64,000 nt of DNA, taken from positions 39,790,821 through 39,854,820 of the forward strand of contig OX344750.2 of the NCBI GenBank assembly GCA_947034885.2. Reading direction: 5' to 3'. The stretch comes from Thuidium tamariscinum (taxonomy: Eukaryota > Streptophyta > Bryopsida > Hypnales > Thuidiaceae). The notes below the pieces were generated by a model. That model saw only the letters and a program-made list of their open reading frames with translations. It made no database searches and was not told the origin of the DNA. Of the stretch, positions 4,171-60,244 are shown in pieces; within the stretch, counting starts at the first letter, position 1, and the number at the start of each line of letters is the position of its first letter. The translations under genes were made by a program, and so were the position numbers.

Positions 4171-4185
4171 TGCAAGAGATTTGGT

Positions 4186-9656: not shown

Positions 9657-10071
9657 CTGATTTTCTGAAGAGACCACAGAGCCATGCAAGCAGCCCTCTA
9701 CGCTCGGTTGTTTCCCGTTCAGAGTTTGATGTTTCCTCACGGCTCTTGGCCTCATCCGTTTCTGACTCCGGACTTACTCCGGACTCTCGACTTACTCCCA
9801 CATAAGAATAGGAACTGCTCATGCAAAGCCTCCTTTCAACGATGGTGACTTGCTTCAGTTCCTGACAATCATTAGAACTCAGAACCACTGCACTACGTAA
9901 GTCATCAGCTTTCACTGAAAACCAATACTCACGATAAATTGCATTCATATCTACTACTATCTGATAAGATTCATTGGGTTTCAATTTCTTCACGAAGGTG
10001 AAGATGCCCGCAGTCCCTTCTTTCATTGTGAGGTTTCCGTCAGTGCCATTGATCGCTGTCGTCTTCGGCAT
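9657..10071 (-). CDS. Small soluble domain protein, ORF3 of copy 2
   Basis: Paralogue of 3744-4170. It opens MPKTTAINGTDGNLTMKEG and keeps the core features: the TAGIFTF strand, SYQIVVD, the YREYW motif, and an SSNDCQELKQVTI strand, followed by a Ser/Glu-rich linker and an LAWLCGLFRK segment. The conserved TCAG|GTGACT donor at 9657/9656 suggests a further exon; otherwise the frame closes at 9616. As in copy 1, the ATG lies exactly 15 bases after the TAA of the membrane-protein frame and in the same frame. Divergence is concentrated in the linker while the core is kept, which argues that both copies were under selection. Function unknown. Confidence 0.6.
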
Positions 10072-10086
10072 GGCAAGAGGATGGGA

Positions 10087-24640: not shown

Positions 24641-25397
24641 AGACTATTTGTAGATGTCTACTAGGATCAAGTAAAGGTAGTTCATAAAGCTTGCTTCTTT
24701 CAAAGATTTGAAAATAATTTCAAGACCTTGGTATAGGTACTCTATTTTCTTGGAAGATGACAAATCTACATACATTAAAGTATTTATAAATCTCAAAAAA
24801 TTAACATTGAATAATCAAATATTGAACACATCATGAACAACATTTTGAGCAAGTTAACCAAGTGGTTTTTAAGTACTTACTTGATCCTTGAAATGTAAGA
24901 ATACAACAAGCAACTCATGTCTAGTAGATTCTCTTCTATTTTCAAGGGAGATGTTTCTAGTTGTCATCACTACAGGATATCTAGAGATTCATGTGTCATC
25001 TGACAACAAATACGATCAAAATAAAAAATCAATGGTGAAATTATAGCTTTCATGTATTGTAAATGAATGAATCTTGCATTTGATGCCACCAAGATCTAAT
25101 ATTAGGTGTTGTGTAGATTTGTTCTCCAATCATAGATAGGTCAATGGTTGCCTTGAGTTTGAAATCTCTAGCATTCTCAACTACAAAGAATAAAGGTTTC
25201 AAAACATGAATGGGATTTTTGAAGTATAAATTAGTATCACCATTGTTTATGTCATTCACGCTTCTAATTGTCACAACTCTAGGGTCAAAATGATCATCAA
25301 AAAATAAATCAAGTAATGCTTTGATATCTTGTCTAAATAGACCTTGCTTATTTTTATAATTACGGATAAAGCTTATTAGATGAAAAGTAAAATCAAA
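24641..25397 (-). pseudogene. KDZ/Plavaka-like transposase relic, middle exons
   Basis: Three exon-like pieces on the minus strand: 25080-25397 (containing FFDDHFDPRVVTIRSVNDIN, PLFFVVENARDFKLKATIDL and YTTPNIRSWWHQMQD); about 24877-24975 (PVVMTTRNISLENRRESTRH, ending in a CAA|GTAAGT donor, with a TTTGTTGTCAG acceptor near 25000); and about 24660-24770 (IEYLYQGLEIIFKSLKEASF). Exon pieces ending in good splice sites show it was once a spliced gene, and stops show it is now broken. The 17.5-kb transposon lies immediately 5' of it. The family call rests mainly on the 22.5-kb piece. Confidence 0.45.
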
Positions 25398-25398
25398 T
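25395..25398. repeat. Left target-site duplication (AAAT)
   Basis: AAAT here and at 42861-42864 immediately flank the 28-bp terminal repeats of the large transposon. Four AT-rich bases could match by chance, so this is likely rather than certain. Confidence 0.6.
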
Positions 25399-25426
25399 AA
25401 GGCCTTATTCGTTAAAATGAGACAAA
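25399..25426 (+). repeat. Left terminal inverted repeat (28 bp)
   Basis: Begins AAGGCCTTATTCGTTAAAAT and matches the complement of 42833-42860 over all 28 bases. It contains one copy of the 16-bp TTCGTTAAAATGAGAC unit that is repeated at the right end. Confidence 0.9.
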
Positions 25427-25914
25427 AGGGTGACTTTGAGACTTTCAAAAATGACTACGAAGTTGCCCTTGAAGAAGAAGTTGTTGAATCCAACGATAAA
25501 TAGAGGCGAACTTGACGTCCCTCAAAGGATTCGGGAGACTTATAGAGATAAAAGATAGTTGTTTGCACTATGTGATGATGTCATAGATGAAGCCAAAAAA
25601 GAACATTGATTTCCGAAGGAATGAAATGAATCAATTACCTTGGGCATTCGCATACACAAGCAACATACAACTTTTCTGAACAAGTTTTATTGAAGTGCAT
25701 GAATTGTGAAATTCTATGATTGATTTCGAATCCAATGAAAGACTTGAACGAGGTCAATGTACAGTCAAGAAGCCCTCAACTTCTTCCACCTTTTTCTCAT
25801 GTCATTTGGATACTAAGCTTTAGACCTGACTATACACAAAGGAAGGACCTTCTCAGTCTAAGACGTGCGAGCTCATAGAACTTTCTATTTATAGTAAAAA
25901 GATCTGAAAGCGAT

Positions 25915-26844
25915 TTAGCTTTCAGAGTTGCCTTCTCTTTCTAGGCCATCTCTATTATTTACCGTTCCTGCTTCTATGCCTCTTAGCTTTGCGAGACCCC
26001 TTAAGATGTCCTCGCGTCGAGAGGAATAATGCGACCCCTTTTCCCTGTACAACGTTTTGGTCTCGCTCATACTATGGCATTCACAGGTTTTTCGTTTTGA
26101 TGGATTTAGGGTTCTTTGAGGACCTCCTGAAGTGGAGAGAGATTTGGATGGTCTCTGTGGGGGTCTGGGCAACGAGGCCTTTACACCGGCTATGTACGGA
26201 AAGGTATCTCCAGCTGACATTGCCTCCAAAGAGCGTCGATGATCTCGAACAATTCGCTGACGGAAAAGACTGTCTGCGGCCGGCAGACGTCTCGCTCCAG
26301 TGGACTTGGAGGATCGTGTTGGGTTATCCTCGACTCGAGGAAGGCGGACAGTTTGTTCGGAAGCGAGAGGTTCAATCTGGGTCCCTTCGCTCGGTGCACT
26401 CGCGGATTTCACTTCGATGGTAGTCTTAGTGGACGTCGGAGAGGGAGCCGGGACATTATCCTCGAGTCGAGGATGCACTTCCGCCTCTTCGACAGGGAGT
26501 TCCAACTTTCGGCTGGTCACTCCGTCTCTCTACGGAGTTGGCGACCAGGACCTTCCCCGACTCGAGGATGTCCGTTTCAACGGCGACGGCGAGCAGATGG
26601 GAGTCCTGCCTGTCGTGCGACTCGGGGGACTGTCGACGACGCCGTCTTCAATGTTTCCCTTAGAAAAGTCTATGGCGGCGGACGCCGCATCCGTGGCTTC
26701 ACAGAGCATGTACGGTTTGGACACGGGAATTGTTTCGCAGTTCCCACCTCCAGATTCGGAGGTGCACAACGACTGCTTCTCCGAACCAGAGAGGAGGCTC
26801 TTCGTGAGCTTCTCCCTGCCTGGCGTGAAAGGGAAAGCTCCAAC
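25915..26844 (-). CDS. Ser/Pro-rich protein of unknown function, transposon-borne
   Basis: The open stretch begins at a TTATTGCAG|GTTGGAGC acceptor (26844) and runs to a stop at 25915, in one frame with one in-frame TAG at 26530-26532. It is rich in Ser, Thr, Pro and charged residues, with no recognisable domain, and ends in a basic region (REDILRGLAKLRGIEAG). Two of the three palindrome copies in it are read in frame as HPRLEDN and LPRVEDN; the third is read in another frame. It may be a 3' exon of the HAD gene upstream (27081-27869) or a gene of its own. The tail of the ParB/methyltransferase-like protein has the same style, including HPRVEDT. The TAG can be explained by one C-to-T change or by an intron that I cannot place. 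Confidence 0.45.
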
Positions 26845-27080
26845 CTGCAATAAAACGAGAGTTCCAAATCCAAAGAAATCCGTTCTATGAGTACATAGAT
26901 GCATGCGGAATGCGGTATCCGTGAGGATTTACGAAGCACAATACTTTGAAAACGAGACAGAATCTCATGAAAAATACTTTATATATATATATATATATAC
27001 CAAAAAACGTGACGTACATACAAAAATTAGATATCATTTGCCTGGACTCCCTCGATGCCTAATTCTACAATCAAAAAAAT
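26845..27080 (-). other. Probable intron or spacer with (TA)n
   Basis: AT-rich, with a TA dinucleotide run at about 26979-26999, between the HAD frame and the Ser/Pro-rich exon. The acceptor at 26844 supports an intron; a GTAGGAAG donor candidate near 27087 would leave the frames one base out, so the join is not settled. Confidence 0.4.
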
Positions 27081-27869
27081 CTACTTCCTACAACGCCGAC
27101 GTCTCTCGACGGTGATGCCCGCCACGGGCACTTCAAAACGAGTGTTCATGCAATCGGCCGACTCCCTCATGACCTCAAGGATTTCCCTGAGGTGAAAATG
27201 GTCGCCAGAGAGGGGGTTATTGCCTATCCTATTTTCGTCTACATATTGAAGCAACCCCCCGTGGGGGTTGCACCCCGAATGCAGCCGTCGGAGCCACGGG
27301 AGTAGCTGTCCCATGAGGACGTCATCCCTCCGATCGAGGTAGCTCCAGGTCTGGAGGAAGATGGCGTTCTCGGATTCATTGCAGACACTCTTTTCGGGAG
27401 AGTCGTCAATGAGCAAGGTGTCGTCCGAGGAAAACGACGACCCCGCATTGCCGATAGTGTCGAACAGACCGTGTTTCAGGACTTTCATGTTCAATTCTTT
27501 CGGACCACGGTGGAAGAACTTCCCGGGACTGTATTCTATCTTCGTGCAGTTTTCCTGTCCTAGGACGTTGAAGGGCGGCCTGCACCTCGCGAACAAGTGT
27601 CCCACGATGGCCTCCGCGTTATACTTATACATGGACGACCAGACCACGACCTTATTCGCGAATTCGGACACTTGTCTCAAAAACTCGTCGACATTCGGCC
27701 TAGCGAAAACGGCCTTGGACCCGATGATGGTCGGGTACCGATGGCTGAGAACATTGTCTTCGACCTTGTAGTGCTTGAAATCTCTACCGAATTTCGCCGA
27801 CGATGAGTGACACAGCACACCGTTGAAGTCGAAGACAATGTTCAGCCACTTCCTCCTCGGCGGAGGCAT
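27081..27869 (-). CDS. FCP1-like HAD phosphatase-fold protein, transposon-borne
   Basis: A 262-aa frame from ATG at 27869 (MPPPRRKWLN). The HAD/FCP1 (NIF) motifs follow in order: motif I D14-F-N16-G-V, motif II VVVWSSM (S78/S79), a motif III lysine in MKVLKHG (about 129-132), and motif IV LLIDDSPEK (D155, D156). The family's usual second aspartate of motif I (DxDx[TV]) is Asn here. I recall plant FCP1-like HAD proteins with a similar DxNG pattern, so this may be a captured plant subclass member, probably with weak or no phosphatase activity. FCP1 proteins dephosphorylate the RNA polymerase II tail, but that target is only an inference here. The frame stays open upstream to ATG at 28001, and a TTTCTTTGATCAG acceptor at about 27921 suggests a leader intron; I chose 27869 because the domain begins nine residues later. 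Palindrome copies are absent from this frame. Confidence 0.75.
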   Translation of the reverse strand: MPPPRRKWLNIVFDFNGVLCHSSSAKFGRDFKHYKVEDNVLSHRYPTIIGSKAVFARPNVDEFLRQVSEFANKVVVWSSMYKYNAEAIVGHLFARCRPPFNVLGQENCTKIEYSPGKFFHRGPKELNMKVLKHGLFDTIGNAGSSFSSDDTLLIDDSPEKSVCNESENAIFLQTWSYLDRRDDVLMGQLLPWLRRLHSGCNPHGGLLQYVDENRIGNNPLSGDHFHLREILEVMRESADCMNTRFEVPVAGITVERRRRCRK

Positions 27870-28395
27870 GATCGGACGCTTGATCCTCCGCACGACCTCT
27901 CCTCTTGCCTGTGACACTACCTGATCAAAGAAAAACAACAAAGAATTGGAGTTACCTGAATAAGTGCAGGACTGGTAAAGCCAAAGTGCGGAGAGACGCA
28001 TTGCACCTCGCTACTCGATTGCACCCTTCCCTTAGGAATTGGCTTCATGGGTAGCGGGGGATGCAAGCTGACATCTACGTCGAGCTGAGCCAAAAATATC
28101 GACAAGGGAATGCAATTAGACACGTTCACTAATGTGGATTGAAAATTTTGCAACTTTTTATTTACATGTTGTATAATGTACATCTCCAAAACGTTCAGGC
28201 CGCCATAACTGCACATTCTATTACTACTCTACAATATTTACTACACTCTGCCCACCGCGGACAGGTTCTCCGTCAGCGCCAGGACTTCAAGGAGTGGTGA
28301 CCCCCCCCTGTCAAACAGCAATAATCACAATGAGATTTCAAACCCAGTCAGAACTAACTCTACCAAGTCAACCACATGATCCCAGGAATTTTTAA
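27870..28395 (-). other. Leader/intergenic region between HAD gene and upstream gene
   Basis: This should contain the HAD gene leader and promoter. A CAG|GTAACT donor-like site (about 27953) and the acceptor at about 27921 are only 33 bases apart, too close for a normal plant intron, so the true 5' exon is uncertain. An ORF at 27917-28216 (minus) covers part of it and could be a short upstream exon (the stretch VSLHPPLPMKPIPKGRVQSS is compositionally plausible). The 3' end of the ParB/methyltransferase-like gene must lie at about 28.3-28.4 kb. Confidence 0.4.
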
Positions 28396-31300
28396 TCAAT
28401 CCAAAGCATAAGGATTCAGTCGTTCTACCTGCACGGGTTCAGTTGTTTGATGCGCAGATTGCTCCTCTAGCGCCACCGCACGAGCTTGGAGTTCCTCCTC
28501 GTCGGGGTCGTTCTCCCCGTAGTCCAACCTCTCCTCCTCTTCGATCGCAGGAGACGTCTCCACAGTCCTCTGAACTTCTTCATTGATTTGGGAAGGTGGA
28601 GGCGTTGAGGCAATGGGCTCTATCACGTGAGATTCTTGGATATCGTCGAGTCAACGATAATCCCGAGCTTCCCCTTCAGTAGGCCCTTGCGTTTGAGGCA
28701 CGACAACCTCAAACGAGGTGAGTTCCGGCGAGGATGCTCTTGACCGGAGTTGAGATGTCGGAGTGCATTTCACAACCTCAGTCTCCGCCAATGAGACGAC
28801 TGCGGCAGTATCCTCGACTCGAGGATGCGGAAGCCCTGATACCAATTCCTGGACTCCGGGAGGGACTGGAATGGCGGATGTGGCAGGTGACGGAAGGGCG
28901 GACGACTGACCCAGTTGAGTGACCATCATCGTGAGTTTTTGCACTTGAAGCTCCAATGTAGAAAGCTTTTGCTTGGACTGATTGGACTCTTGAGTGACCG
29001 CGATGAGTTCTCGTTTGGTGTCAGCCAACTCCTTGTCCCTGGCCTTCCTCTCTTCCTCTCGTGCGAACCTTTTAACCCTCACCTCTTCCTCCTTTGCCCA
29101 GTAGTCCTTCTCCACCTTAATCGTCTTTCCGTCAGGCAGGATGATCGGTTTCAGTTCAACCTGCTTGAAGGGGGCGTCGCGGTCCTCGTCGTCGTGATCG
29201 GATTCGTGCGGATGGTCCATCGGGTCGTCGTCATCCCCGAAGTCGTAGTAGAGGGGTTTTCCATCCTTGTCGAACTCACCGACGGGGAGTCTCCTCTCCT
29301 GCATCACTACGACCTCGTCACTGGAAGCCTCCTCGTGTTCATTGGGAGGGTCGTTCATAAACGCGTCCTCCTCCCCACCGAAGCCCAATGAATCGTCCTC
29401 CTGCCTCTTCTTCGTCCTCCGCTCCGCCTGCTGCCGTTCCCAATCGGAATCGGTCTCAACGTCCTCGTCTTCACCCCCGTCACCTTCTCCCTCCTCGCTT
29501 TCTTCCCCATCGCCTTCTCCCCCCTCGCTTTCTTCCCCATCGCCTTCGTTATCTTCATTCTCTTCTTCAGAAGAGGATTGGGGACGCTGCTCTTGGACGG
29601 CCTGGACTTCGACCAACTCCAGATCCGTAGCAGCGGGTCGGGAGACAGTACCCGGCGCAGCAGATGCGGAGGGAACACCTGCCACAGCGGGTCGAGAGAC
29701 ATTGCCTTGAGTAGCGGGTGCGGGGACTACTGCTGGCTTGGACATCCACAAGTAAATTTGGAACATGTTGGTTCCATATTCGTCTATGCCTTGCACCCCT
29801 GGATCTGCGGTTACGTGGGGGCCGATATTCTCCCGCACCCGAAGGTCTGGTTGAATTTCATCTGCCGGCGACACTAGAGTCATGGGAGGCGAAGGGGGGG
29901 AGTTGGAGTGCACCAACTCCGGTTCACGAGTTTTGGGCTTCACGTACGTCATGGAGTATGGTGAGTTACTCATCATGAAGTCACAATCATCCATCTTCTT
30001 GGCCACAAGGGCAATTGCCTGATATGATTTCACCTCAGACCTATGAACGAATCCATAGTAATACGCCCCGAACATCTGCAACAATGAGATAATTATATTT
30101 AATTCCAGAACAATACTACGAAGTAAATTATATGCTGCCAAGGTTATCGTTGACTCGACGATAAGATATTCGGTATTTTTTTGAGTGTGTTGGTAACTCT
30201 AAATTAAAGAAGGGAATACGTGAGAAGGTATCGTCGACTCGATGATAACTATCATGGTTTAGGAAATAATACCTTTGCGGCGAGCATGAACTTCGCTCCC
30301 GCGAAGACGCCCAGGACGTTCTCTTCAGGCACTGCAAAAGCCTGAAGCATTTCTAAGTAGAACTCCATACGGAGTTCGGAAGGCTCAATTCTCCACTTCG
30401 CCTCAGTGTTCTTCGCCCACTCATTGAAGTACACGTTCTGGACGGGACATCTGTACAATGACTTCACCAAGCTTCGGCATGATGAAGCAAACTCGTCATT
30501 CTTCTTAAAACAGAAGACGAGCGGCACATCTGGAGCTACGCCACGGTTTGTGACGTTGTCGAGCAGCTCCGCCCGCGCTGGTCTATACGAGGACAATACG
30601 CAGTCGTAGTTCCTCAGCTTCAATGCTGCGAATGCCGTCGCGGCATTTGTGTCTTGCGGCCCCTACAAGACAAAAAGCCAGATGCTTGGGGTGGTGATCT
30701 TTGGTTCCAGTTTTGCCGAAAGAAAGTTCAAAACTTTGTCGACGGCGGCAGTCGTCTCCGTGGGCTTTGACCGTGGAGCGATTCTCAAGTCCACCAGGGC
30801 AAACCTCACATCCCGAGAATCGTACCGATAACTGGAGCTAGTTACCAGCGCCTTCTTTAAGTAGTCCACCCCACGAATCTGTACACCTCCTGTGAGTTCT
30901 GGTAGCTGATACTTCAGCTTCATGAACCTGTTAAACATATACAGGACCCCGGGAAATGCCTTCTCGAGATCCTTGGCTCTCTTCAGCCAAGCATCGTTTC
31001 GCAGGCGTCTCTTGAAGTACTCAGCAGAAGGTTGCGTGAGCAAAAAATCCCAGGAGGCCGAGGTAAAGCGATGTCTAGCTTTCCAGGCCTTCCAGGTCTT
31101 GTCAATAACATCACCACCACTGTTAAAGAAATTGAGATCCGGGTTGATTGCCATCAAGTCTTGGAGGACAACTTTCTTGCGCTTCCTCCGCTCAACCCAC
31201 TCCTTGTGGGTCATGTTGTTGGGCACGAGGACTCTCGTCGCAGAGACCGAAACCTTGGGGTACAAGGCTATGCGTCCTGGAGTTAATCCCAGGAGGTGAA

Positions 31301-33234
31301 CCGCGTTTGCACCGAAGTCAACATCCGTGAAATGGCCGTAGTGTTTAAAGAACTCCCTCTTTAGGGACATGCTCTTTATTTTAAAGCCCTTTCCGGCTTT
31401 GTACGGCTCGCATGTCATGGGATCAATCAAATCACCCTCGGAGTGTTGCGTCAAGAAACTCTCCCAGAATGCCCAGAGGTTGTCCGGAAGGGTAATTATT
31501 TGGATCTCGTTCTTGAGCTCCACTGTACCTTTAATCGAAGCGCCGTCTCCTTCAGGATTAATGTTCCTGAAACGCTCGATGACGGCATCGGTGAAACTCT
31601 AATTGAACAGAGAACAAACAAAATGTCAGCGAAAATTAACATTCTAGCACGCTATCATCGACTCGATGATAGGCAGAACATTATGAGAAAGATAGAAACC
31701 ACACCTCAAGGTTTGCATCTCCCCACATCACATCCTCAGAACCAAACACAAATAAACATGGAATTCATATCGATATCGTCGACACGACGATAATGGGACG
31801 ACTTCAGCTTACCGTATACTTGTCGAGCTTAAAAACGGCTTGGTTTTTTCTTGTGGCGCCCTCTGAGTGGGTGTCAGTGGGGCGCTCGTACGTGACCCAG
31901 ATGCTTCTGCAACTAATAATTTGGTTACCCCACGTCGGTTGCGCGTGGTTCAAATGGTTAGTGCAGTTGTAGAACTTCGAGATGTTCCTTAGTTTGTTAT
32001 CGTCGAGCGACCACACGATATATGCATCCCATGTTTGCAGTTCTACTTTTCGAGCCTCTCCACAACCACTTTTCTGAAGTTCCTGAGACGCAGTAATGCT
32101 GTGTTGGCCGTTTATTATCATGAATTTGCCATCTTTAATTTCATCCCATGTCTTTGGCCTCTCTTCGAGAAGCTTATCTTGAAGGCCAACAGGGGTGAGG
32201 CAAACCTTCTGCCGTTGCTTAGCATCTATCAATTGAACTAGCTGCTTCTTTACGGCATCCACAATATCGCGTTGAAGAGTACGAATCACGTACTCTGGCT
32301 TTGCCACAATGCACTGTTTGATGTCAACTTCTACTGTCTCACTGCTGAACAAAAAACAATTTTTGTGCTCTTTCCAGAACTCTCTCTGGATGACCGAGAA
32401 CTTCTCAAAGTCTGTTTTATCAGACTGAGTAGGTGTTGGACCAGCTGACAGCATTGTAGTGAGCGCCGAACCAGAACTACCACCTGTTACTACAGCAGAC
32501 GAAAGACTTTTCTTCCGTTTCCTGCTTGATTCTCCTTCTCGAGAAGGTGTGTCTCGTTTCTTCGGCTCTGAACGTGATTGACCGGGCCTCGTCACTTGGC
32601 TCCCAGACCGTGAAAGCGTGGAGACTCTCGCGGCCGGAGTTGATGTTTCCTCTCGTTGCCTCTGATCGGTGGGGCGGCCAAGAATAGGTTGCCTTTGAAC
32701 GTTTTCTAAGGCATACCGGTCTAGTGTCTGAAAAATTAGTCGCAGTCTGCTTGCGTTCGACCGGGCCGTGCTGTCTTTCCAGGGAACAAAGCCGGACTTC
32801 ACAAACTGCGCGTTCAATGCATCCATTTCACCACCTTCAAGAAAGGTCATGAGCGCATCCAAATCAAATTTCCCGTGGTAGCCGTTGACGTCTATGACGA
32901 CAGAATGGCAATGCTCTTTCGATTTTCCATCATTGTCCACCTCCCGCAGCACAATCAAAACATAATTTTTTTGGTGCTCCTCAATAAGTGTCACTTTCTC
33001 CCTGATATTCCAAGGAATATATGTCGTCGTCCCTGCAACCCGGTATCGGAGGTAAACATAATTTCGAAACCGATTCACACCAAAGCTCCATGTGTGAATA
33101 TGGTCCTTGAATTGCCAGAGCGTGCCGTAGCTGTCCTCCATCTCCCCAATGAAGGGCTCACCGACTAACGGGTTCACAAACGGCTGAAGATGGTGCTCAG
33201 TCGCAGAGTAGTCGTAGCCGTCCGTTGTCTCCAT
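28396..33234 (-). CDS. ParB-motif + DNA-methyltransferase-like fusion with acidic coiled-coil tail
   Basis: Three exons in phase 0: 31813-33234 (ATG at 33234; donor ACG|GTAAGC), 30273-31598 (acceptor CAATTAG; donor AAG|GTATTA), 28396-30075 (acceptor TTGTTGCAG). Exon 1: an unknown N-terminus, a basic Ser-rich linker with KRKK (239-242), and a ParB/DGQHR-type motif FMIINGQHSITASQEL (about 371-386). Exons 2-3 read like an amino-type DNA methyltransferase: a VRFALVDLRIAP segment where DPPY would stand, IWLFVL, and across the splice NVLGVFAGAKFMLAAK plus MFGAYYYGFVHRSEV, resembling the SAM-binding DPFxGSGTT..A...GR..G.E region. The catalytic DPPY is absent, so a DNA or SAM binder is likelier than an active enzyme. 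The tail has an acidic run, then a coiled coil. Both introns carry two palindromes each. In-frame TAG (30663) and TGA (28651, within a palindrome copy) suggest early decay. The domain calls are by eye. Confidence 0.6.
28641..28660. repeat. Palindrome copy at the end of the long tail frame
   Basis: TATCGTCGAGTCAACGATAA, with one base off the CpG pattern. On the minus strand that change turns CGA into TGA, closing the 28651-30075 frame; 85 further open codons follow in the same frame to 28396. Confidence 0.7.
30076..30272 (-). other. Intron 2 of ParB/methyltransferase-like gene (197 nt)
   Basis: Donor AAG|GTATTA and acceptor TTGTTGCAG|ATG join phase-0 exons exactly within the SAM-loop-like region. 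It contains palindrome copies at 30145-30164 and 30229-30248, 84 bp apart. Confidence 0.75.
31599..31812 (-). other. Intron 1 of ParB/methyltransferase-like gene (214 nt)
   Basis: Donor ACG|GTAAGC and acceptor CAATTAG|AGT join phase-0 exons. It contains palindrome copies at 31653-31672 and 31775-31794, 122 bp apart. Confidence 0.75.
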
Positions 33235-34145
33235 GGCGGAGATTCCTGTATTTGTAGGACAAAATGTATGGTCAGTATCTTCATTCCGCGTATCGTCGAC
33301 TCGATGATAATCATTTATAATTGGATTGTACCTTCTCAGGTGTATAATTCTGGTGAGGACGAATTCTTAGACCTTCATTGCTTAAACATAAGATTTCCTC
33401 TACGTTCCTATTTTTGAACTAATAGTTTTCTTTTGATTCAGCCATTTCCTCCCGGATGCCTGTCTACTGATGATAAAGGATCTCTTGTCATCGGATCGAT
33501 GATAAGAGAAACATTATTTTTTCTTTCCCTATGTGTAACACTGTTTGTGTACATCATCGGTTCGAGGATAAGCCTTCAGAAAAGCATAAAACGACACTGT
33601 AGTTGAGAGTCCGTTCAATGCTATCGTATCGTCGAGTCGATGATAATGGTGAACAATCTAGGGATGGTCTCAACTTACGAGGTTCACTCTTTCTTGATTA
33701 TGGAATTTTGTCATATCATCGGGTCGAGGATAAGACACAATTCCCCGAATTAAAGTAATTGCAATATCCAGAATGGGTCTTCATAGAAGTTAGTTTCCAA
33801 GATATTAATATTACTAATTCTTGTTCTGAGAATAAAAAACAAATTCATATACGTAATTACGTGGGGTTGACATCATCGGGTCGACGATAAGCAGTTTCAA
33901 GGCGCGGTTGCTTTCATTTGCTTGGGAATTTTGGCTCTGTTACTGTTATCATCGGTTCGATGATAACAGTCGTCTCTCTTACTAAATTCATTTTCGGTCT
34001 CAAATTACGAGTTCCACTTTATCATGATTATGGAGGTCTTCTTCTTATCATCGGGTGGAGGATATATCAGAAAACGCCGAATTCGATCATTTCTACTGTT
34101 AAACCGACTACCCTAATGTAGTATCGTCGAATCGATGATACCAAT
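33235..34145 (-). promoter_or_regulatory. Leader of ParB/methyltransferase-like gene with nine-palindrome array
   Basis: An ACAAATACAG|GAATC acceptor at 33246 just upstream of the ATG suggests that most of this is a leader intron. Palindrome copies begin at 33291, 33486, 33552, 33627, 33714, 33871, 33947, 34046 and 34122, each 19-20 bp, spaced 66-195 bp, on one face or the other. The DNA between copies is AT-rich and shows no frame. The array could be a binding platform for transcription control, a splicing aid, or both. Confidence 0.6.
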
Positions 34146-35540
34146 GATAAGAACTACACTAGACCATAATCTACACGAATTTCTCTAGAAGTAACTGATA
34201 ATGTGCTCTCTTTTAGTGTCCGCTACCCTAAACCCTAATTTCCCTTACAAACTGTACAATACTATTTCACCTGAACCACTGCACAACTAATTTACAATTC
34301 AGCTCAGAAGTGATTCAGGGTTCTATTACTGTGTCTATAAGGAAGAAAGGAACCCTCAGACGTTCCTAAACCCTAAACCCAACGACTTGAATCCCTGCAT
34401 TTGCTATTAGAAGCAAAACCCTAAATCCACAGCAAAAAACAAGACTAATTGTGCAGATTCTTACCGTCACTTACGAAGATAGTGATCGAAGTTGTTGATG
34501 AAGAAAGGGAACTTGTCGATGAAGACCCTAAACCCAAATGAAATCCGAGTCCCTGCCGAAGAAAATACACGCTCGGATAAGCACGATCTCACCCAAGAAG
34601 ACAATTGTTACGAATGCATGAAGAAAATCAAGTTCTGAATTGATCAATTGAGCTTGATCACAATCAACTTCAGCTTCCACTACAAACTTCACATTTCACT
34701 GACCTGAACTCACTGTCAATGAGAAGTTCAAGAGCTGCGTCGAAATCCCGAAAACGCTCCACCTGTAAGCACCGCTTGTGCCACCTCCAACACTCCTGCC
34801 TGAAGACACTGAAATGTACAAACGACACAGAGTTCTCCAAAGCTACCACCCCCAAAACAAAATGGTCGCGACGCCGACACCTAAACCCCAATGCTTATAC
34901 CTGAATATCCAAAACCGCAAGCATCGTTCACAAACACATTACCCTCAAGACTAAAGACAACACACACAAGAGCGGGACAAGAGGCGGAAGAGAAGCCGGG
35001 CGCGCGCGAGGGAGAAAAGGAAATGAGCGCTCCCAGAAATCGCTCCCCCAGGTGGAGACGACGACCAACCGACCCTACTCCTTAGGTTCGGTACCAGACC
35101 TAAGTCTAGGCTGGACGTCAGGCTCGGTACCGCCGTGCGTGGAGGATCGGCAACAAAGGAACGCGAGGTTCGGCACCGAACCTGTCGGTTTATAGTTTAA
35201 GGTTTTATCAAATTAAACTCCTATACATCAGTGATCACAGGATAGATTTAGGGTTTTTAGCCAAATGTTCATTTTTGAAAGATTTTTAAAAAAATTTACA
35301 AAGGGCATGAAAAAATTAGGTAGAAGATGAGCGAAATTTAGCCAGTTCTGGGATCACTGCTATACATTAAGATTACATTCATGAAGACTTGATGACGAAT
35401 GCTGTACAATACATTTTCCAAAACAAAGTGTCCATCCCATTTTTACTAGCTTAAGGTACACTACAACTTGTTTAAATGTTATTTTCTTTAACTTAGGTCC
35501 AAGAATAAAATTAAAAAAGATGCCATAATTTTTTTTAAAT
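34146..35540. promoter_or_regulatory. Divergent promoter region, left part, with telomere boxes
   Basis: No palindrome copies occur here. Several AAACCCTA boxes (about 34229-34440, near 34530) are typical of plant 5' regions, and the interval then becomes GC-rich with GGTACCRAACCT-type inverted words at 35085-35205. It probably contains the transcription start of the minus-strand gene and possibly its first exon; the ORF at 34670-34891 (minus) has no domain and I treat it as leader. Confidence 0.45.
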
Positions 35541-35543
35541 CTA

Positions 35544-35819
35544 AGGTAGGTACACCCAAAAGCGCCACTTATTCATACTGAGCCTAGTTCCTACTATTAA
35601 TTAGTTCAAATTTTTATGTAGTTTTGTTGGCAAGTGCAAGCATGTTCCAACACACCAAAGAACACAGGATTTGGATACCGTATGCAAAAATTATGAACAG
35701 TCCAAGTCTGTTTATAAAAGCGCCACCATCTATAGTTTGTGAACATGACTGATTTCAAAAATGTATGTGCACTGTAGATGGTGCTTTTAGGAACAGGGCG
35801 CTTTTCAGTGTACCCACCT
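35544..35819. mobile_element. Nested 276-bp MITE with TA duplication
   Basis: Ends AGGTAGGTACACCCAAAAGC and, in complement, AGGTGGGTACACTGAAAAGC are inverted copies, with a TA on each side (35542-35543 and 35820-35821). There is an inner hairpin around GCGCCACCATCTATAG versus CTGTAGATGGTGC. A TA target points to a Tc1/mariner or Harbinger-like non-autonomous element. It inserted into the large transposon after, or during, the latter's history. Confidence 0.75.
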
Positions 35820-35821
35820 TA

Positions 35822-38465
35822 TGTACAAATTAAAATTACCACAAACACCCTACCATCACAAAAAAAAATACTGTATTCATTAGAAATGGGGGCTAATCAG
35901 AAAGGAGTTGTCATGTTTTGTTACACCTTTGTTTCAAGTAATTATTAACCAAACATAAAGATTAATGCCCAAAAAAAATTTGGCCTCCTCAACATTATAA
36001 CTTTACCATTATTTATATTTCTATATATTTTTGAACATTATAACTTTACCATTATTTATATTTCTATATATTTTTGAATAATACTGTTTTAGTTAGATGA
36101 ACAGTTAATTGCGATATATGTAATCTATAATGTGTACAAATGACAATCATAATCAACAATGAATGCAACAATAATGACAAAAGACATTGCAAAAGATATC
36201 AAATAAGACAGCTAATGTTCTCTTCGAATTTTCATGCCCAAAAATTTATTCTTATATACAAACTTTAAAAGCAAATATTTAAAAAACATTTTCAGAACTT
36301 TGTTCTGTAGCTTGCAAATCATCCCTTCCGGCCTACCCAATAGGATGAATAAACTTGGCCTCCTCATGAAGTAGGATAAAAAAACATACCAACTTCTTCA
36401 AATTTAGTTTTCCTATTCTCAATGTTAATTGCATGACATTTCTGGTTTTATTAAGGTTCCGAAAATTTAAAGAAAATGGCAAAGTTTAGGTTCATTTGGT
36501 TTATAAATGTACATTACGCAATTTGTGGTCAAGAAATGCAAAAGTAATCATAGGAATGACATGTTCTAAGACATGCCAACTTGAACAAATTTTTTTTGCC
36601 TATTGTGAACGTGAATTGCATGACATTTGTGGTTTCAGGTTTGTAGACAAAAAATGGCAGGGTTTGGGTATTTGGTTTTTCTTAAAGTATTTTTGGTCGT
36701 TTGTGGTCATAAATTGAAAACTGCCCATGGAAATCCAATGTTGTAGTAATTATTTTGTTTTATGAATCATGAGGCTAACCAGAGCAAACTTCTAAACAAG
36801 TAAAATTTTGTATCCATACAAAATACGTAAATTTGATTTTGTTCCTGGAAGAAGAAATTAAAGGATTATTGAGGGCCTACAGTTGAAGGACTATTAGTAA
36901 CAGCTGCAAGATTGAAGTATATGTTAAAGGCTTGCAAGGTTTAGAAATGTATGTATTCTTTTGAAGAACTCACTCTATTCGTTGGAAGATTGAGTTATAC
37001 TTACAAGCCTACCATGAAATATTATAATTAATTTTATTATTATTAAGAACTAGTAATTTTAGTTGTATTTGAATTTTTGTTTGTAAACGAGCAACCCTAA
37101 CCTGTGAAAGCCTTCCAAGCTTTAGTGCATTCTGTTGAAGAAGACAGAAAATCACCAGGCTAATGAATTGTGTTTTAGATTTTATAATATGAGTGCACAT
37201 GAAGTGAAATTGAAGTCCTCTCGAATAAATCAGATTAAAAAAAAATGACTCAAGGTTTATATGTATAAACCTCATACATATATGAAATTGCTTTCACATA
37301 TTCAGAAGTCTGACATCATTTTTGGAAAGAATGAAATGTAGAAATGTTTGTCATTCTTCACTTTAAAGAATAATTTCAAAAACAATTGAAGTATAAATTT
37401 AGATGTAATTTCCCGATTAAAAAATATAACCTATACAAATGGATTATAGACAATATATCCTAAACCATCAACTGAAGCACATCTTATGCACAAATATTTG
37501 TGAATCCTAAATCATAGAATGGAAGTATAAACCTCAATCACTGAAGCCTAAAGAACACCAAAGATTGAAGAATATCCCATGAAGCTAAAGCATAAACCGT
37601 AAAACGGAATCCAAAACCGTACAAATAAATCCTAAACCCTAAACCCTACAATTTAACCCTACATCCTAGAAGTACATCTGAATCCCAGAATTGAACCCTG
37701 AAACCTAAACGTAGATAGTGAACTCTAGAAATTAGTCCTAAACCCTAAACCCTACAAACCCTAAACCCTAAAGCCTAAGGAATAAAAGGTGAACCCTAAA
37801 CTCCAAAGCAATAAAAGCATAAGACTAAATGAACTGAATTCCCGAGAAGGCTTGGTCACATTTTTAGAAATCAGTAAATGCAAAGGGAGAAGTTCAGAAG
37901 TCAACTGGAGGCATTTGAAGTGGACAACTGTACGAAGTCATGAATTAGTTAGCCGACAAAAAGATTCCTCTTACCTGTCAAAGGAAGCGCTGAAATTTAG
38001 TCATTTGTGGCTGTGGACCGCACGTTGGTGCGCCAAGGCTGCCAGCAAGCGGGGCCGAAAGTTCTGTAATGCCGAAAGTTTTGGAGCACTTGCCTAGAAT
38101 TTTGGGGTTCAGGGCGTGTATGTGGACAGATTTGAAATATGTGCCTTGCGCGCGTTTTTTTCCCGCCCTCGCTGTCTTGGTGCTTCGGCTTCTCTTCTCG
38201 CGACCTCACTGATTTCGTCATGCATGAATAATTGATCGTATGCTCACTCTGTTCTCTTGCGCTCCGTTTTCTCATTTCTCAATCGTGCATTCGCTTCTGT
38301 AGATTGTATGAACTCATTGGAACTGTACTCAGTTGCTTGTTTTGCGCATTGGCGTGGACATTAACATCCTGCTGCGGAGGTACTGTTTTCTATGAACATC
38401 ATATTTGACCTGTTTTGTCTGCACTTCACTGTTTGCTAAGACAATGTACTGTTTCGTAGGATGTG
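35822..38465. promoter_or_regulatory. Central intergenic region of the transposon, right part
   Basis: AT-rich DNA without a supported gene. It has a tandem 43-44-bp duplication at 35990-36076 (two copies of ACATTATAACTTTACC...), a telomere-box cluster at 37.6-37.8 kb, and a GC-richer stretch at 37.98-38.28 kb that may hold the promoter and first exon of the transposase gene. No palindrome copies occur before 38568. Confidence 0.45.
37610..37790 (+). repeat. Interstitial telomere-like CCCTAAA cluster
   Basis: Several runs of CCTAAACCCTAAACCCTA separated by degenerate versions. These are short and interrupted, so not a chromosome end; telo-boxes are common in plant promoters. Confidence 0.7.
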
Positions 38466-39393
38466 TAATGCAATTGTTTGTGACTTTTACGCAAATGTTG
38501 ATGAAGTTCTGGTCTACGCTTGCCTCCGAAATAATCGCCGTAAATTACGGGATATGTACATGATCATTATCATCGATTCGATGATAACATTCATGTATAT
38601 CATCGAGTCGATGATAATTACGAGGAACGTAGAAGTAATATAGTATAATGCAGGAAGTATCTTCACATCTTAAAAAGGGAGGAATTGGATGGGATGGTCG
38701 TGCTCTGCTGATGTCTATAACATTTCTTTTGTATAGAAGTTATCCTCGTGTCGATGATAACTACTCAGTAGACGAAGCACTTCATGTCGCCTTCACTTGA
38801 AATGAGTAGTGCAGGAGTTTGTTCTGTGGGATTTCTCGAAATCTTGGTTTACACGTACATTGTAAATTGTCATGGCTTTCTATGGATTATCGTCGAGTCG
38901 AGGATAGTTTGCGAACTTGTAATTGTGTGTGTCCTTATTTACCATGGGAATTCTTATTTCATTAATGAAATTGAAACCATGAATACTTCAGACATTGTGT
39001 ATGGGTCATAATTATCATCGGGTCGAGGATAAGTGCATTATCTGTCTGAATATTTTCTTAGTGCTAGTTCGTTAGAGCAGACACTTTTCTATAATGAATA
39101 TGTGAGCACATATTGCAGGAGATCTTTCTTGTCCAAGTTATCCTCGATTCGAGGATAACTGTTATTGTACTCGGTATTGGTTTTTTCTTTGGTTAATCGA
39201 AATGATTATTCTTGGACCTAATAGTAGGTTTTACTTCTGATCTCTTCTAGTTTTATTCATGTTGAGATTCTGTATTCAATTTGATATCCCTCTGGTATGT
39301 GTCGTCTGTTTTACGGATATCGATATTTTAAAGATGCATTTGTTATCGTCGACTCGATGATGTTCATTCTGATTGGTGACTTATTTTTTACAG
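38466..39393 (+). promoter_or_regulatory. Leader of transposase gene with seven-palindrome array
   Basis: A TTATTTTTTACAG acceptor ends at 39393, one base before the ATG context, so the upstream 0.9 kb is probably a leader intron. Palindrome copies begin at 38568, 38598, 38741, 38888, 39013, 39139 and 39344, mostly 125-205 bp apart. This mirrors the nine-copy array before the divergent gene. Confidence 0.6.
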
Positions 39394-39394
39394 A

Positions 39395-42259
39395 ATGAAT
39401 TACCATGGGCCAGAGGACTTCACAAATCCAGTTCTGGTACTTCCACTGGATGTTCGTCTGTGCGAGGGGATCCCTCGTGCAAAGTGGGTTACACAGCCCG
39501 TGACTCTGCAAGACAATGATGGCGTGGATATTGTAAGGGGCATTTGTCAGAATGTTGATCCTGAGCTAGTCTTTGACCAGAATGGGAACTCGCTTGGTGA
39601 TGATCGAGTCGCCATTCATATCGCAGAGTCTTTGAACGAGGAGCTCTTCTCATCGGCAAATATGTGGTCTATACGATCTTGGCACATTAGGAGAGTTTTT
39701 TTGTATGACGGTGCTTCTTTGTATGACCATGACGAAACACAGAAGTACAATACAGCCATGAATCCAAAGAGAGTTCGAAAGGGGGTTCGATCATATGAAT
39801 CAACTCGGTCGAGGATGGATCCTGAGGTCCCTCCCAAAAAAGAGTTTCTCTTGACTATGGAATCGATCACAGCAGTTTCCACGAAAAGTTGTTGTGGGGA
39901 GATTTGTGTACAACATTTCCCGCGTGCACTTATTCAAGCAATACGGATCGAGTTGTATGGTAGTAATGACTTCAAAGCTCGCAACAAGACTTTGTTGGAG
40001 GTGCATAGGCAGATCCACAAGGATGCTAGTGGAAAAGAGTGGATCACCTTGAAAGAGAGGGAAGTTTGTCCTATTGCGTGGTGGATCATTCATGGGATTG
40101 CGAAATGTACATTTTATAGGTACAAAGAGAAAGCCAAAACTGGAAATCAAGCCGATGTCCATGGGAATATGGGAAGTAAGAAGCCTCGAATGCAAACTCT
40201 TCAAGCTACTGCCACACTTCGAAGGTTAATTGAGTCAGATGCTGATAAGATGCCACACAAAACAAGGACATTGGAAACTGGAGAGAAGGTCACTGCCATG
40301 GTTCTGCCATCCTCGTTTCGTTGGAGTGATCAACTGAAAACAATCAATGAATCCAATGCAAGCTTCAATTTGCCACCAATTTCTTCTAGCGGTTTGAGCA
40401 ATATTCGTCGTGATTCTTTTCCTGAGTTTGCTGCAAAGGCTCGTGGAGATACATTTGCTAGATGTGGTTTGTGTGACAAGTACAACCAATTGAGAAGCGC
40501 TTGTGTGGGTGAAGAGGCAAAATCTAAGTGGGAACAACTGAAGAAAGTCCACAATCAGGGGCAATTGGCTCATAGACAACTCTACTACGGACATCGGGAT
40601 CAATCAGTAAGAACGCCAGATAAGGTGTTGTGCATTATTCACGACAAGATGGATCATTCCAAGACTGCTTCTCCTCACTTTTCCCACAAGACTAAAGTAA
40701 CCGAATCCTTCATGAAAATGCCTATTGCAGTGACCGGTATGATTGCTCACGGACATGGTGATGTGCGATATGCACACTATAGTTTGGGCATTTATCCAAC
40801 AGATTCAAATCATACCATTGGATCGATAGCGAGGTTGTTGCGTGATTTGGAAGGAGTGCCAAAGAATTCATCGCGTAAGTTATTTTCAATAGAAGACAAG
40901 CAATCCACCTTGACAAAGGCACTTTTAAATGGAGCAGAGACTTATTTGGATTCCCTCCTTCCACCTCCAGAGGATCCACTTCCAGCTAATCCTCTCCCCC
41001 CTGTATTAATATTACAGTTAGACAACTGTTCAGGGGACAACAAGAATCGTTATGTTTTCGGTTTTTGCTCTATGCTTGTATGCAAAGGTATTTTTCGTGA
41101 GGTGTACATCAACTTCCTCATTGTAGGACACACTCATGAAGATATAGATGCTCTTTTTGGTCGATGGAGTTCCAGATTGAAGACAAATAACTATCCAACA
41201 CTTCCAAGGCTCATGAAGTCATTCATGGATTCTGATGAGCACCCTGTGATTCCTCATCTCATTGAGGAAGTTCCTGACTTCAAGGCGTTTGTACATGGAT
41301 ACCTCGGTACGGGTGGGGACTTCTTAGAGGGTCATTCTAGATCTCAACAATTTAAGTTTTTTAAGGATTCAAATGGATGGCCTCTCATGGAGTATAAGAA
41401 TTTGTGTACAGATGATAAGTGGTTGCCTGAGGGAAGCAAGGGAATAAGATTGTGGTCCGAGACTACAGATGGGCTTCCTAAAATACCAACAGGTAGTCCT
41501 CCACCTCTAGTTCCTGAACCGATGAAGGCGCTTTTAGATGTAAAGAAGGGTCTGACCGGTTTTGTTGAATACTGGAAGAAAATGGCAAATGACGATTACA
41601 CAGGAGAATTTAGGCGGAAGAATGGTGCCTTAGAAGATTATTGGAAAGGCGTTCGAACAGCTTTGGATGCACCTCTTCAAGTGCGTGAAGCGTTACTGGA
41701 TGGATTTTGGCCAGCTTCCAGGGTTACCCTAGACGAGACAGATCGAATGCAAAGAGATGGGACATTGCATGAGGAAGATGCAGAAGATGCACCATTTGTT
41801 GGACGGAGGCGTGATCGTCCGCGTCCTTCATTTCGTGTTAATGTGGATACACATGAAGGCTCTTTTATTGCGGTGCGTCCTGATGATGGTGATCCTAAAC
41901 CATTTTGGCTTGCTAGAGCCATTACGGCTCCAAGTCCAGATCCAGGGCATATGCATATGATTCGAATTCAATATTGGACGCCTGCCTCAAACCGGCACAT
42001 TAATATGGATACGTATGAGGGATGGGACTTGAAACAAGGGAATGTATGGCGTGAAGACTCCGCGATCAAGCCAACCTGGTCAAATACGGGTTGTATTCTA
42101 ACAGCTTGGAAGCCTCGTTTCAGAGAGAACACTAAAAAACCAAAAGTGTCTATTCCAAATTTACAAATTGGAATCATTAAGGCATCTGTGGCAGCCATTA
42201 CAATCGAAGAACGAAGCAATGATGAAGATGAGGAGGATGAGCCTATGGAAGAAGAGTGA
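39395..42259 (+). CDS. DUF7869-like RNase H-fold transposase, 954 aa
   Basis: One uninterrupted 954-codon frame from ATG at 39395, directly after a TTTTTTACAG acceptor. The C-terminal half shows the DUF7869-type core: IIHDKMDHSKT (D417), a long HGHGDVRYAH strand region, LILQLDNCSGDNKNRY (D543), and FLIVGHTHEDIDALFGRW (H579, E582, D583, D585). These acidic residues fit a DDE-type RNase H catalytic set. CGLC (357-360) with C370 and nearby His may form a zinc site. The last 150 residues hold a WLARAI..RIQYWTP segment, possibly chromatin- or DNA-binding, and an acidic end. I associate this family with transposon proteins scattered in animals, algae and seedless plants, but its superfamily name is not certain. 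It would recognise and cut the element ends. Frame and motifs look complete, so it may still be active. Confidence 0.82.
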   Translation: MNYHGPEDFTNPVLVLPLDVRLCEGIPRAKWVTQPVTLQDNDGVDIVRGICQNVDPELVFDQNGNSLGDDRVAIHIAESLNEELFSSANMWSIRSWHIRRVFLYDGASLYDHDETQKYNTAMNPKRVRKGVRSYESTRSRMDPEVPPKKEFLLTMESITAVSTKSCCGEICVQHFPRALIQAIRIELYGSNDFKARNKTLLEVHRQIHKDASGKEWITLKEREVCPIAWWIIHGIAKCTFYRYKEKAKTGNQADVHGNMGSKKPRMQTLQATATLRRLIESDADKMPHKTRTLETGEKVTAMVLPSSFRWSDQLKTINESNASFNLPPISSSGLSNIRRDSFPEFAAKARGDTFARCGLCDKYNQLRSACVGEEAKSKWEQLKKVHNQGQLAHRQLYYGHRDQSVRTPDKVLCIIHDKMDHSKTASPHFSHKTKVTESFMKMPIAVTGMIAHGHGDVRYAHYSLGIYPTDSNHTIGSIARLLRDLEGVPKNSSRKLFSIEDKQSTLTKALLNGAETYLDSLLPPPEDPLPANPLPPVLILQLDNCSGDNKNRYVFGFCSMLVCKGIFREVYINFLIVGHTHEDIDALFGRWSSRLKTNNYPTLPRLMKSFMDSDEHPVIPHLIEEVPDFKAFVHGYLGTGGDFLEGHSRSQQFKFFKDSNGWPLMEYKNLCTDDKWLPEGSKGIRLWSETTDGLPKIPTGSPPPLVPEPMKALLDVKKGLTGFVEYWKKMANDDYTGEFRRKNGALEDYWKGVRTALDAPLQVREALLDGFWPASRVTLDETDRMQRDGTLHEEDAEDAPFVGRRRDRPRPSFRVNVDTHEGSFIAVRPDDGDPKPFWLARAITAPSPDPGHMHMIRIQYWTPASNRHINMDTYEGWDLKQGNVWREDSAIKPTWSNTGCILTAWKPRFRENTKKPKVSIPNLQIGIIKASVAAITIEERSNDEDEEDEPMEEE

Positions 42260-42752
42260 ATATTTTATAGTGGTAGTATGTTGTTGTTGCATTGTTGTAT
42301 TTCAAGTATTAGATTGTTTTTTTCATATTGTAGTTTAAAAGTATATTTATAAAGTAGAATGGTATTTAAATGCATATATAGTACAAGAATTGGATATGTA
42401 TTTCATCACAATATTGTGACTATATAGTACATATTGATTTCTATTAATAGTAAATATAGTTTTTGCAATTGCATTTCAAACTTGTGTGTACAAAATATTT
42501 TCCTGCATGAAGGAGTACGTGAGTACGTGATAAGTTCGTGAAGTCAAAGTATGATATCATCAAACTTTACATGTATGTTTCAATAAGTAGAAGTGTCCAT
42601 TTAAAAAAACACCGAACTTGAAAATGTTTCAAATGAGGTGTTTTGTTTACTTATAAAACAATTGGAAGAGGAAATTTGAATGTTGATAGTAGATATTTGA
42701 CACTTGTAGAAGTAAGAAAATAATAATAAAAGTTAATTTTTGGCATTCTTGA
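42260..42752. other. 3' flank of transposase gene
   Basis: AT-rich, no frames; probably 3' UTR and polyadenylation region. Confidence 0.5.
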
Positions 42753-42851
42753 GTCTCAATTTAATGAAAAGTCTCAATTTAATGAAGACTTTTTTAGCCT
42801 TAAAATAGAAAGTCATTAAAATGAGACCACAATTTGTCTCATTTTAACGAA
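42753..42851. repeat. Right subterminal array of the 16-bp end unit
   Basis: Units close to GTCTCAWTTTAAYGAA occur at 42753-42768, 42771-42786, inverted at 42812-42827, and at 42836-42851 inside the terminal repeat. The left end has only the one unit in its terminal repeat plus a weak partial at about 25435-25447. These are good candidates for transposase-binding sites. Confidence 0.75.
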
Positions 42852-42860
42852 TAAGGCCTT
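42833..42860 (-). repeat. Right terminal inverted repeat (28 bp)
   Basis: The complement is identical to 25399-25426 over all 28 bases. Confidence 0.9.
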
Positions 42861-42864
42861 AAAT
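42861..42864. repeat. Right target-site duplication (AAAT)
   Basis: Matches 25395-25398. Confidence 0.6.
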
Positions 42865-57090: not shown

Positions 57091-57482
57091 ATTATTCAAA
57101 GTGTCTCTTAAAAATTTTTGGTGTTTAATTGAAGGTTGAAGTGGCAAGGTGCCTTGAGAGGAAACAAGACATAGAGAGGTAAGCCTCCAAAAATAAGAAT
57201 GCATTCCTTCTTCAACTCCTTTGCAAATTGGGGTACGTGAAGTATTTAATGTAGCCATTTGACCATCATGTACTTGTGGATTTGGTTCATAGTACAAAAA
57301 TGAGTTCACAACATTCAAGTGATCCCTCAATTTTAGGGAGAAGAAGAATCCTATGACCCCAAGATTATTTGAAAGGCCCGCCAAGGTTCCCTCTCCATTC
57401 TTGTCCAAGCTGTAATGTCCACACCATAGCATCCACGCCCTGTCGCGGACGTTGGGGCGCAGACGTCAACTTTCTTCTGCTT

Positions 57483-57597
57483 TTGCGATTGGAGTTTTGG
57501 GAATCTGGGGGCGTGTAATATACCATTGGAAAGATATTTTGAATACCTTTCCAATGGTATATTACACGCCCCCAGATTCTCAAAACTCCAATCGCAA
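57483..57597. repeat. Hairpin 3 (115 bp)
   Basis: Same hairpin as 54411-54525, preceding block A'. Confidence 0.88.
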
Positions 57598-57624
57598 ATT
57601 GAAAAACAAATCTGCTGCCAACAT

Positions 57625-60200: not shown

Positions 60201-60244
60201 GATTTACTGCGTTGTGGATGTTGGCAGCAGATTTGTTTTTCAAT

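What the first reader, a model, noticed from the sequence alone, without database searches (positions are those of the whole stretch)
26335..39363. About 25 copies of a 19-bp CpG palindrome confined to the transposon
TATCNTCGRNTCGANGATA occurs about 25 times between 26.3 and 39.4 kb and I found none outside. It is two inverted CGANGATA half-sites around a 3-bp centre; half-sites are strict while bases 5, 9, 10 and 15 vary independently. That pattern suits a dimeric DNA-binding protein (selection on half-sites) rather than a folded RNA (which would covary). ParB-type proteins classically bind dispersed palindromic sites.
Basis: partly seen in the sequence, partly recalled or inferred. Interest (0 to 1): 0.9.

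Follow-up and report, generated by a model that had tools for sequence, protein, structure and literature searches.

The report
Moss transposon's own palindromic binding sites
A large moss jumping gene carries about two dozen copies of a 19-letter palindrome, mostly inside its own introns, that look like docking sites for a protein the element itself encodes, perhaps to keep its genes switched on.

The parts
25399..42860 (.). DNA transposon, 17,462 bp, with 4-bp target-site duplication AAAT at 25395-25398 and 42861-42864
   Evidence: 29-nt perfect inverted ends; 11 full-length copies, 10 of 11 with a 4-bp TSD and one with 5 bp
25399..25426 (+). left terminal inverted repeat
   Evidence: 231 + 222 places with at most 2 mismatches in the genome; reversed control 0
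42833..42860 (-). right terminal inverted repeat
26325..26475 (.). 2 palindromes (26325, 26457) in the coding exon of the left-end gene, spelling PRVED and PRLED in frame
28641..28827 (.). 2 palindromes (28641, 28809) in the long acidic exon 3 of gene 1; in the window copy a stop codon lies inside the first
30145..30247 (.). 2 palindromes (30145, 30229) in intron 2 of gene 1 (30272-30076, splice sites read from the sequence)
   Evidence: homologous tails
31653..31792 (.). 2 palindromes (31653, 31774) in intron 1 of gene 1 (31812-31599)
   Evidence: homologous site in L010 and words in 19 of 81 homologs
33291..34140 (.). 9 palindromes (33291, 33486, 33552, 33627, 33714, 33871, 33947, 34046, 34122) in the inferred 5'-UTR intron of gene 1
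   Evidence: acceptor site just before the ATG also in E8 and L010; donor near 34464 inferred
38568..39362 (.). 7 palindromes (38568, 38598, 38741, 38888, 39013, 39139, 39344) in the inferred 5'-UTR intron of the transposase gene
   Evidence: acceptor before the ATG in 10 of 10 copies where the ATG was located (not located in E11 there); donor not settled
31813..33245 (-). gene 1 exon 1: PH-like domain (weak match), disordered linker, ParB/sulfiredoxin-fold domain (candidate sequence reader)
   Evidence: no Pfam hit; model and fold matches; 81 homologs
30273..31598 (-). gene 1 exon 2: beta-class DNA-methyltransferase fold without DPPY motif; in-frame TAG at 30663-30665 in the window copy, open there in some relatives
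28430..30075 (-). gene 1 exon 3: acidic, fast-evolving tail; 3' border not settled
27081..28001 (-). NIF/FCP1-type phosphatase-like exon
   Evidence: PF03031, E 2e-14
39395..42259 (+). transposase (inferred from position and family) with DUF7869 domain, 954 aa
   Evidence: PF25273, E 5.9e-46; 48 scored matches in the genome

Best explanation
The palindromes are DNA recognition sites for a protein that the transposon itself encodes, most likely the product of gene 1 (PH-like domain, ParB/sulfiredoxin fold, beta-class pseudo-methyltransferase). The protein binds the two half-sites (T/Y)CGANGATA, is seeded at many points along both transcription units because the sites sit in their introns, and keeps the element's own chromatin transcribable against the host's DNA-methylation silencing. 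This is sequence-specific anti-silencing, as VANC proteins do for VANDAL transposons. Shown: the sites, their selection at DNA level, their layout, the dialects, the link of dialect to the gene-1 module, and the predicted folds. Inferred: that gene 1's product is the binder, that it is dimeric, and that the effect is anti-silencing.
For: Non-chance and confinement. Selection on half-sites with the internal N positions as control: (Fisher p 2.6e-15 against outside, 1.2e-5 against N positions). Same layout across deep divergence: sites about 20 bp after the intron-1 donor and upstream of the ATG-proximal acceptor in the window copy, E8 and L010 (42% identical protein); translated palindromes in 19 of 81 exon-1 and 13 of 51 exon-2 homologs, nearly all in the read-through tails, against shuffled means of 0.88 and 0.28 and reversed controls of 1 and 2. 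Dialects; purine-type sites in at least three separate clades of a quick tree. Dialect follows the ParB module: groups A and B share it, and the ParB tree joins A+B (transposase topology rejected, p-AU 0.006), whereas the transposase tree joins A+C (ParB topology rejected, p-AU 1.8e-13). Gene 1 evolves fast: exons 1 and 2 are 57-63% identical to groups B and C against 81-87% for the transposase, as expected of an arms-race factor. Folds. VANC21 motifs likewise lie in introns of VANB/VANC and upstream of VANA, with subfamily variants (PMC5735166, passages read).
Against: No binding, expression or methylation data. VANC motifs are in tandem arrays, whereas these are singly dispersed palindromes. 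No helix-turn-helix was identified and the ParB CTP box is not conserved. The breakpoint between the two tree histories may lie just before the transposase ATG, so sites and ParB module may travel together by linkage alone. A repressor or copy-number control predicts most of the same facts. Dialect states rest on few independent switches. Direct signs of host methylation are mixed: stops in ParB-exon matches are mostly TAG (101 of 124), which would suit CHG decay, but the transposase matches show no such bias (19 TGA, 19 TAG, 9 TAA), and inherited stops are counted several times. Group A pooled shows a weak excess of 5-15 pairing.
Confidence: 0.47

Rival explanations
1. The same element-encoded protein binds the sites but represses: a KorB-like silencer that limits the element's own transcription and copy number.
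Against: The central 4.4-7.1 kb between the two site groups, where both promoters must lie, has no site with up to 2 mismatches in 11 of 11 copies; subfamily dialects and fast divergence suit an arms race better than self-restraint.
Confidence: 0.22
2. The sites bind the transposase or an accessory transposition protein, like the subterminal TnpA sites of En/Spm (recalled).
For: The element encodes a transposase; some plant transposons use many internal sites (recalled).
Against: In the window copy sites start 0.9 kb from one end and 3.5 kb from the other; the dialect conflicts with the transposase tree. The TIRs are the same in the 11 copies, but these were picked by an exact 25-bp TIR match, so that counts for little.
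Confidence: 0.1
3. The sites bind a host transcription factor and act as intron-located enhancers.
For: Seven and nine sites lie in inferred 5'-UTR introns, where plant introns often enhance expression (recalled).
Against: Dialects differ between element subfamilies living in one and the same genome, and the listed sites that were checked are in element copies (54 of 58).
Confidence: 0.12
4. The palindromes act in RNA, as hairpins or splice-site bridges in the introns.
For: Two sites flank each of introns 1 and 2; each palindrome could fold on itself; group A pooled pairs at 5-15 more than chance (57 of 101, expected 47.4, p 0.014; Watson-Crick 47, expected 35.3, p 0.009).
Against: Pairing is near chance in the window copy and in groups B and C; 7 C-A mismatches against 4 U-G wobbles on the transcribed strand in group C; N positions drift like the surroundings.
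Confidence: 0.06
5. A true parABS-like segregation system.
For: ParB fold and dispersed palindromes.
Against: No ParA hit in 8 element ORFs by Pfam; the element is integrated in chromosomes; GxRR is replaced.
Confidence: 0.02

Closest known systems
VANDAL transposons and VANC anti-silencing proteins (Arabidopsis)
   Same: Element-specific short motifs concentrated in non-coding parts, including introns of the element's accessory genes and upstream of the VANA gene; motif differs between subfamilies; accessory protein diverges (PMC5735166 and PMC10398659, passages).
   Different: Here 19-bp palindromes, singly dispersed, 4-bp TSD, DUF7869 transposase, ParB-pseudomethyltransferase in place of VANC; no functional data.
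VirB/virS and KorB/OB (ParB-family regulators of bacteria)
   Same: ParB-family proteins that act from DNA sites on transcription; VirB is an anti-silencer (PMC10653881, passages; PMC10770331, start of abstract in the listing), KorB acts over a distance (PMC11790492, passages).
   Different: Bacterial; ParB proteins and VirB bind CTP through a GxRR box, here GQHS; here also a PH-like and an MTase fold, and a eukaryotic host.
Phage ParB-N6/N4-methyltransferase fusions
   Same: ParB fold joined to a beta-class MTase; such fusions are enriched in phages (PMC12704722, passages).
   Different: Here in a plant transposon, with introns, and without the DPPY motif.
Sola transposons
   Same: 4-bp TSD, reported in Physcomitrella, some over 15 kb (PMC10741241, passage).
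   Different: Transposase kinship not tested; no such accessory module is mentioned in the passage I read.

Membership tests
ParB (CTPase clamp) | ParB/sulfiredoxin fold | tested here: met
ParB (CTPase clamp) | GxRR nucleotide box | tested here: not met
   GQHS in 27 and GQHN in 1 of 28 aligned rows
ParB (CTPase clamp) | helix-turn-helix reading parS and dimerisation domain | tested here: inconclusive
   Not recognised in either exon model; the parts were folded exon by exon and exon 3 was not folded
ParB (CTPase clamp) | ParA partner | tested here: inconclusive
   No Pfam hit to ParA in 8 element ORFs scanned
beta-class DNA methyltransferase | MTase fold | tested here: met
beta-class DNA methyltransferase | catalytic DPPY-type motif IV | tested here: not met
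   No [DNS]PP[YFW] in 51 of 51 homologs; the likely place reads D-x-R in 24 of 27 aligned rows; the place is my reading of the alignment
VANDAL/VANC anti-silencing | element-specific motifs in introns and upstream of element genes, with dialects | tested here: met
VANDAL/VANC anti-silencing | MULE transposase and about 9-bp TSD (recalled) | tested here: not met
   DUF7869; 4-bp TSD in 10 of 11 copies, 5 bp in one
VANDAL/VANC anti-silencing | the protein binds the motif and removes methylation | not testable with these tools
   Needs EMSA and methylome
Sola | 4-bp TSD | tested here: met
   10 of 11 copies
Sola | Sola-type DDD transposase | not tested
   No Sola reference set at hand; the Pfam family is one of unknown function

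The most novel reading that the evidence does not exclude
Probability: 0.33. Interest if true: 0.92.

Novelty: new variant of a known kind. Interest (0 to 1): 0.8.

Why it matters
If right, sequence-specific anti-silencing by transposons is not an Arabidopsis curiosity but has arisen at least twice from unrelated proteins. The dialects give a natural experiment in how a DNA reader and dozens of dispersed sites change together. A eukaryotic ParB-pseudomethyltransferase would also extend the functional range of both folds.

Tried and rejected
Viral contigs: the pattern gave 9 stretches with one site each (still one each at up to 1 mismatch) and the protein scan found no relative, so they are taken as chance. 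Genome contigs: one relative, in a MAG called Synechococcales; its gene has an intron, so I take it for contamination from a moss (inference). PDB by sequence: nothing convincing (2 weak matches). RNA covariation: not supported except for the excess in pooled group A. Partition: see rivals. Not in print: searches listed no paper on DUF7869 transposons with ParB-like genes or on such palindromes; one search looked for the host genome. That covers only the open-licence PMC library, and most listings were read as titles and abstract starts. PMC12730594 (fungal transposons with TET/JBP) and the moss genome papers were seen as listings only.

Methylation decay: I first read the TAG-rich stops of the ParB exon as CHG deamination; the transposase matches do not share the bias, so it is no longer used as support and confidence was lowered slightly.

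The host genus is not known; 19 contigs suggest Sphagnum (recalled chromosome number, inference). VIA-align lists are second looks at Foldseek's matches; no helix-turn-helix family or VANC-like fold appeared in them, which excludes nothing.

The 0.34^20 figure uses my rough estimate of intron share and is not relied on; the chi-square there treats related copies as independent and is not quoted. In one search the word at residue 27 of P0013 and the one at 357 of P0226 lie outside the tails, but both proteins also have tail words. The tree used 44 of the 81 exon-1 homologs; dialect was known for 27 of 59 rows, the minimum was 5 changes over three states, and it warned of long branches. The fetched elements are 10 of the 17 other paired exact-TIR copies that I counted by hand in the cut list; they were picked by exact 25-bp ends. 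In one search the gene-1 ATG of E12 was not found, so E12 was compared in one intron only.
Full report
WHAT IS THERE. One search finds 24 places in the window that match TATCNTCGRNTCGANGATA with at most three mismatches, all between 26,325 and 39,362; shuffles give 0.69. The inverted ends and the flanks define a transposon at 25,399-42,860 with a 4-bp target-site duplication. Its right part encodes a 954-aa DUF7869 protein taken as the transposase, its left part a NIF-phosphatase-like exon and a leftward gene without Pfam match. The window lies in a 363-Mb genome of 19 contigs. Introns, teloboxes and DUF7869 relatives named as Ceratodon and Physcomitrium say moss; the genus (perhaps Sphagnum) is inference.

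GENOME SCALE. With at most one mismatch the motif has 3,029 forward and 3,008 reverse matches, against 8 and 8 for the reversed control (a palindrome matches on both strands, so about 3,000 places). Of 58 exact places listed on contig C1 up to 22.65 Mb (counted by hand from a cut listing), 54 fall in seven clusters with an element gene (ParB-like, transposase or phosphatase exon), one lies beside a diverged TIR-like end (L020) and three at 19.92 Mb were not tested. The TIR has 231 + 222 places with at most two mismatches, control 0. The window's ParB-like exon scored 90 matches (two are pieces of one copy), a distant homolog scored 83; the two lists overlap, and only the best candidates are scored.

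LAYOUT. Ten further full-length elements were fetched, picked by exact 25-bp ends. All 11 have 17-26 sites (231 in all with at most 3 mismatches, 183 with at most 1) in the same order: a group upstream of the transposase ATG, a group upstream of the gene-1 ATG, usually two in each of two introns of gene 1, and a few in coding exons. In the window copy 20 of 24 are outside coding exons. The upstream groups end at a splice acceptor directly before the ATG (transposase: 10 of 10 copies whose ATG was found; gene 1: window copy and E8; L010), so they lie in 5'-UTR introns; acceptors are seen, donors inferred. Between the two groups a gap of 4.4-7.1 kb holds no site with up to 2 mismatches in 11 of 11 copies, and one 3-mismatch match in each of the four group-C copies. 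In window copy, E8 and L010 a palindrome stands about 20 bp after the intron-1 donor although the proteins are only 63% (E8) and 42% (L010) identical to the window's. Public homologs of the exons spell the palindrome, nearly always in the read-through end, in 19 of 81 (exon 1) and 13 of 51 (exon 2); shuffled means 0.88 (maximum 5 in 200) and 0.28 (maximum 2), reversed controls 1 and 2; transposase homologs 5 of 113, shuffled mean 1.88, maximum 7.

SELECTION AND LEVEL. Between the window copy and E11, in the two 5' introns, fixed site letters differ in 28 of 222, positions 9 and 11 in 10 of 32, N letters in 20 of 48 and surroundings in 699 of 1,850 (Fisher 2.6e-15 and 1.2e-5). For the closer copies E12, E6 and E7 the rates at fixed letters (0, 4 and 6 changes) are also below the surroundings but too few changes exist to weigh. 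Positions 5 and 15 pair near chance in the window copy, E11, E8, E13, group B and group C; the five related group-A copies pooled show an excess (57 of 101, expected 47.4, p 0.014; Watson-Crick 47, expected 35.3, p 0.009). On balance this speaks for a DNA reader; a preference for symmetric half-sites would also give such an excess.

DIALECTS. Half-site base N is T92, C56, G53, A1 in group A (window, E12, E6, E7, E11), C20, G18, T12 in group B (E1, E8) and A103, G11 in group C (E2, E3, E9, E13), for sites with at most one mismatch. On a quick ParB-exon tree (59 rows, 27 with a known state) purine-type sites occur in at least three separate clades, with at least 5 changes over three states; several branches are long or open. 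The transposase tree joins A with C (100/100) and rejects A+B (p-AU 1.8e-13); the ParB tree joins A with B (100/98) and rejects A+C (p-AU 0.006). The dialect follows the ParB module. The change of history may lie just at the transposase ATG, so physical linkage of sites and module remains possible.

MECHANISM. The nearest working model is VANC: a transposon protein that binds a short motif in introns and upstream regions of its own element and removes silencing, with motif variants between subfamilies (PMC5735166 and PMC10398659, passages). ParB relatives can anti-silence (VirB) or silence at a distance (KorB). Signs of host methylation in dead copies are mixed: stops are mostly TAG in the ParB exon (101 of 124) but 19 TGA, 19 TAG and 9 TAA in the transposase. 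Binding, dimerisation and effect are not shown.

VERDICT. Real, strongly selected, element-wide, and not found described in the library searched. Works like VANDAL/VANC, is not a member of it, and the sign of its effect is open.

Noticed in passing
G000 contig C11: 38 of 90 ParB-like exon matches lie on this one contig, a strong concentration that might mark a sex chromosome or recombination-poor region.
   Followed up: no
ParB-like exon and transposase copies genome-wide: In-frame stops are mostly TAG in ParB-exon matches (101 TAG, 15 TAA, 8 TGA in 90 matches) but evenly TGA and TAG in transposase matches (19, 19, 9 TAA in 48 matches); the difference is unexplained and inherited stops are counted repeatedly.
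   Followed up: partly
window 27081-28001: The NIF/FCP1 phosphatase-like exon reads D-x-N where DxD is usual (usual motif recalled); it may be a pseudophosphatase.
   Followed up: no
window 57022-60820: Two identical 136-aa ORFs in opposite orientation (57022-57432 and 60410-60820), with a neighbouring pair of similar ORFs also mirrored: a large inverted duplication.
   Followed up: no
window 3688-5606 and 9616-11497: Two similar pairs of small genes, a DUF7748-type protein and a protein with a VVLTAVSQLAA stretch, look like a tandem duplication (only the first pair was scanned).
   Followed up: no
E13 element coordinates 6254-6298 (L048): A TIR-like stretch inside E13 next to exon 1 suggests a nested small element.
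   Followed up: no
E8 (L040, L041): Its target-site duplication reads 5 bp (TTCTT) where the other ten copies have 4 bp.
   Followed up: no
L010: A contig in a cyanobacterial MAG carries the moss-type gene with intron and five perfect sites; probably contamination from a moss.
   Followed up: partly
window 34214-34440 and 37620-37790: AAACCCTA telobox clusters in the central region on the upstream side of both genes.
   Followed up: no
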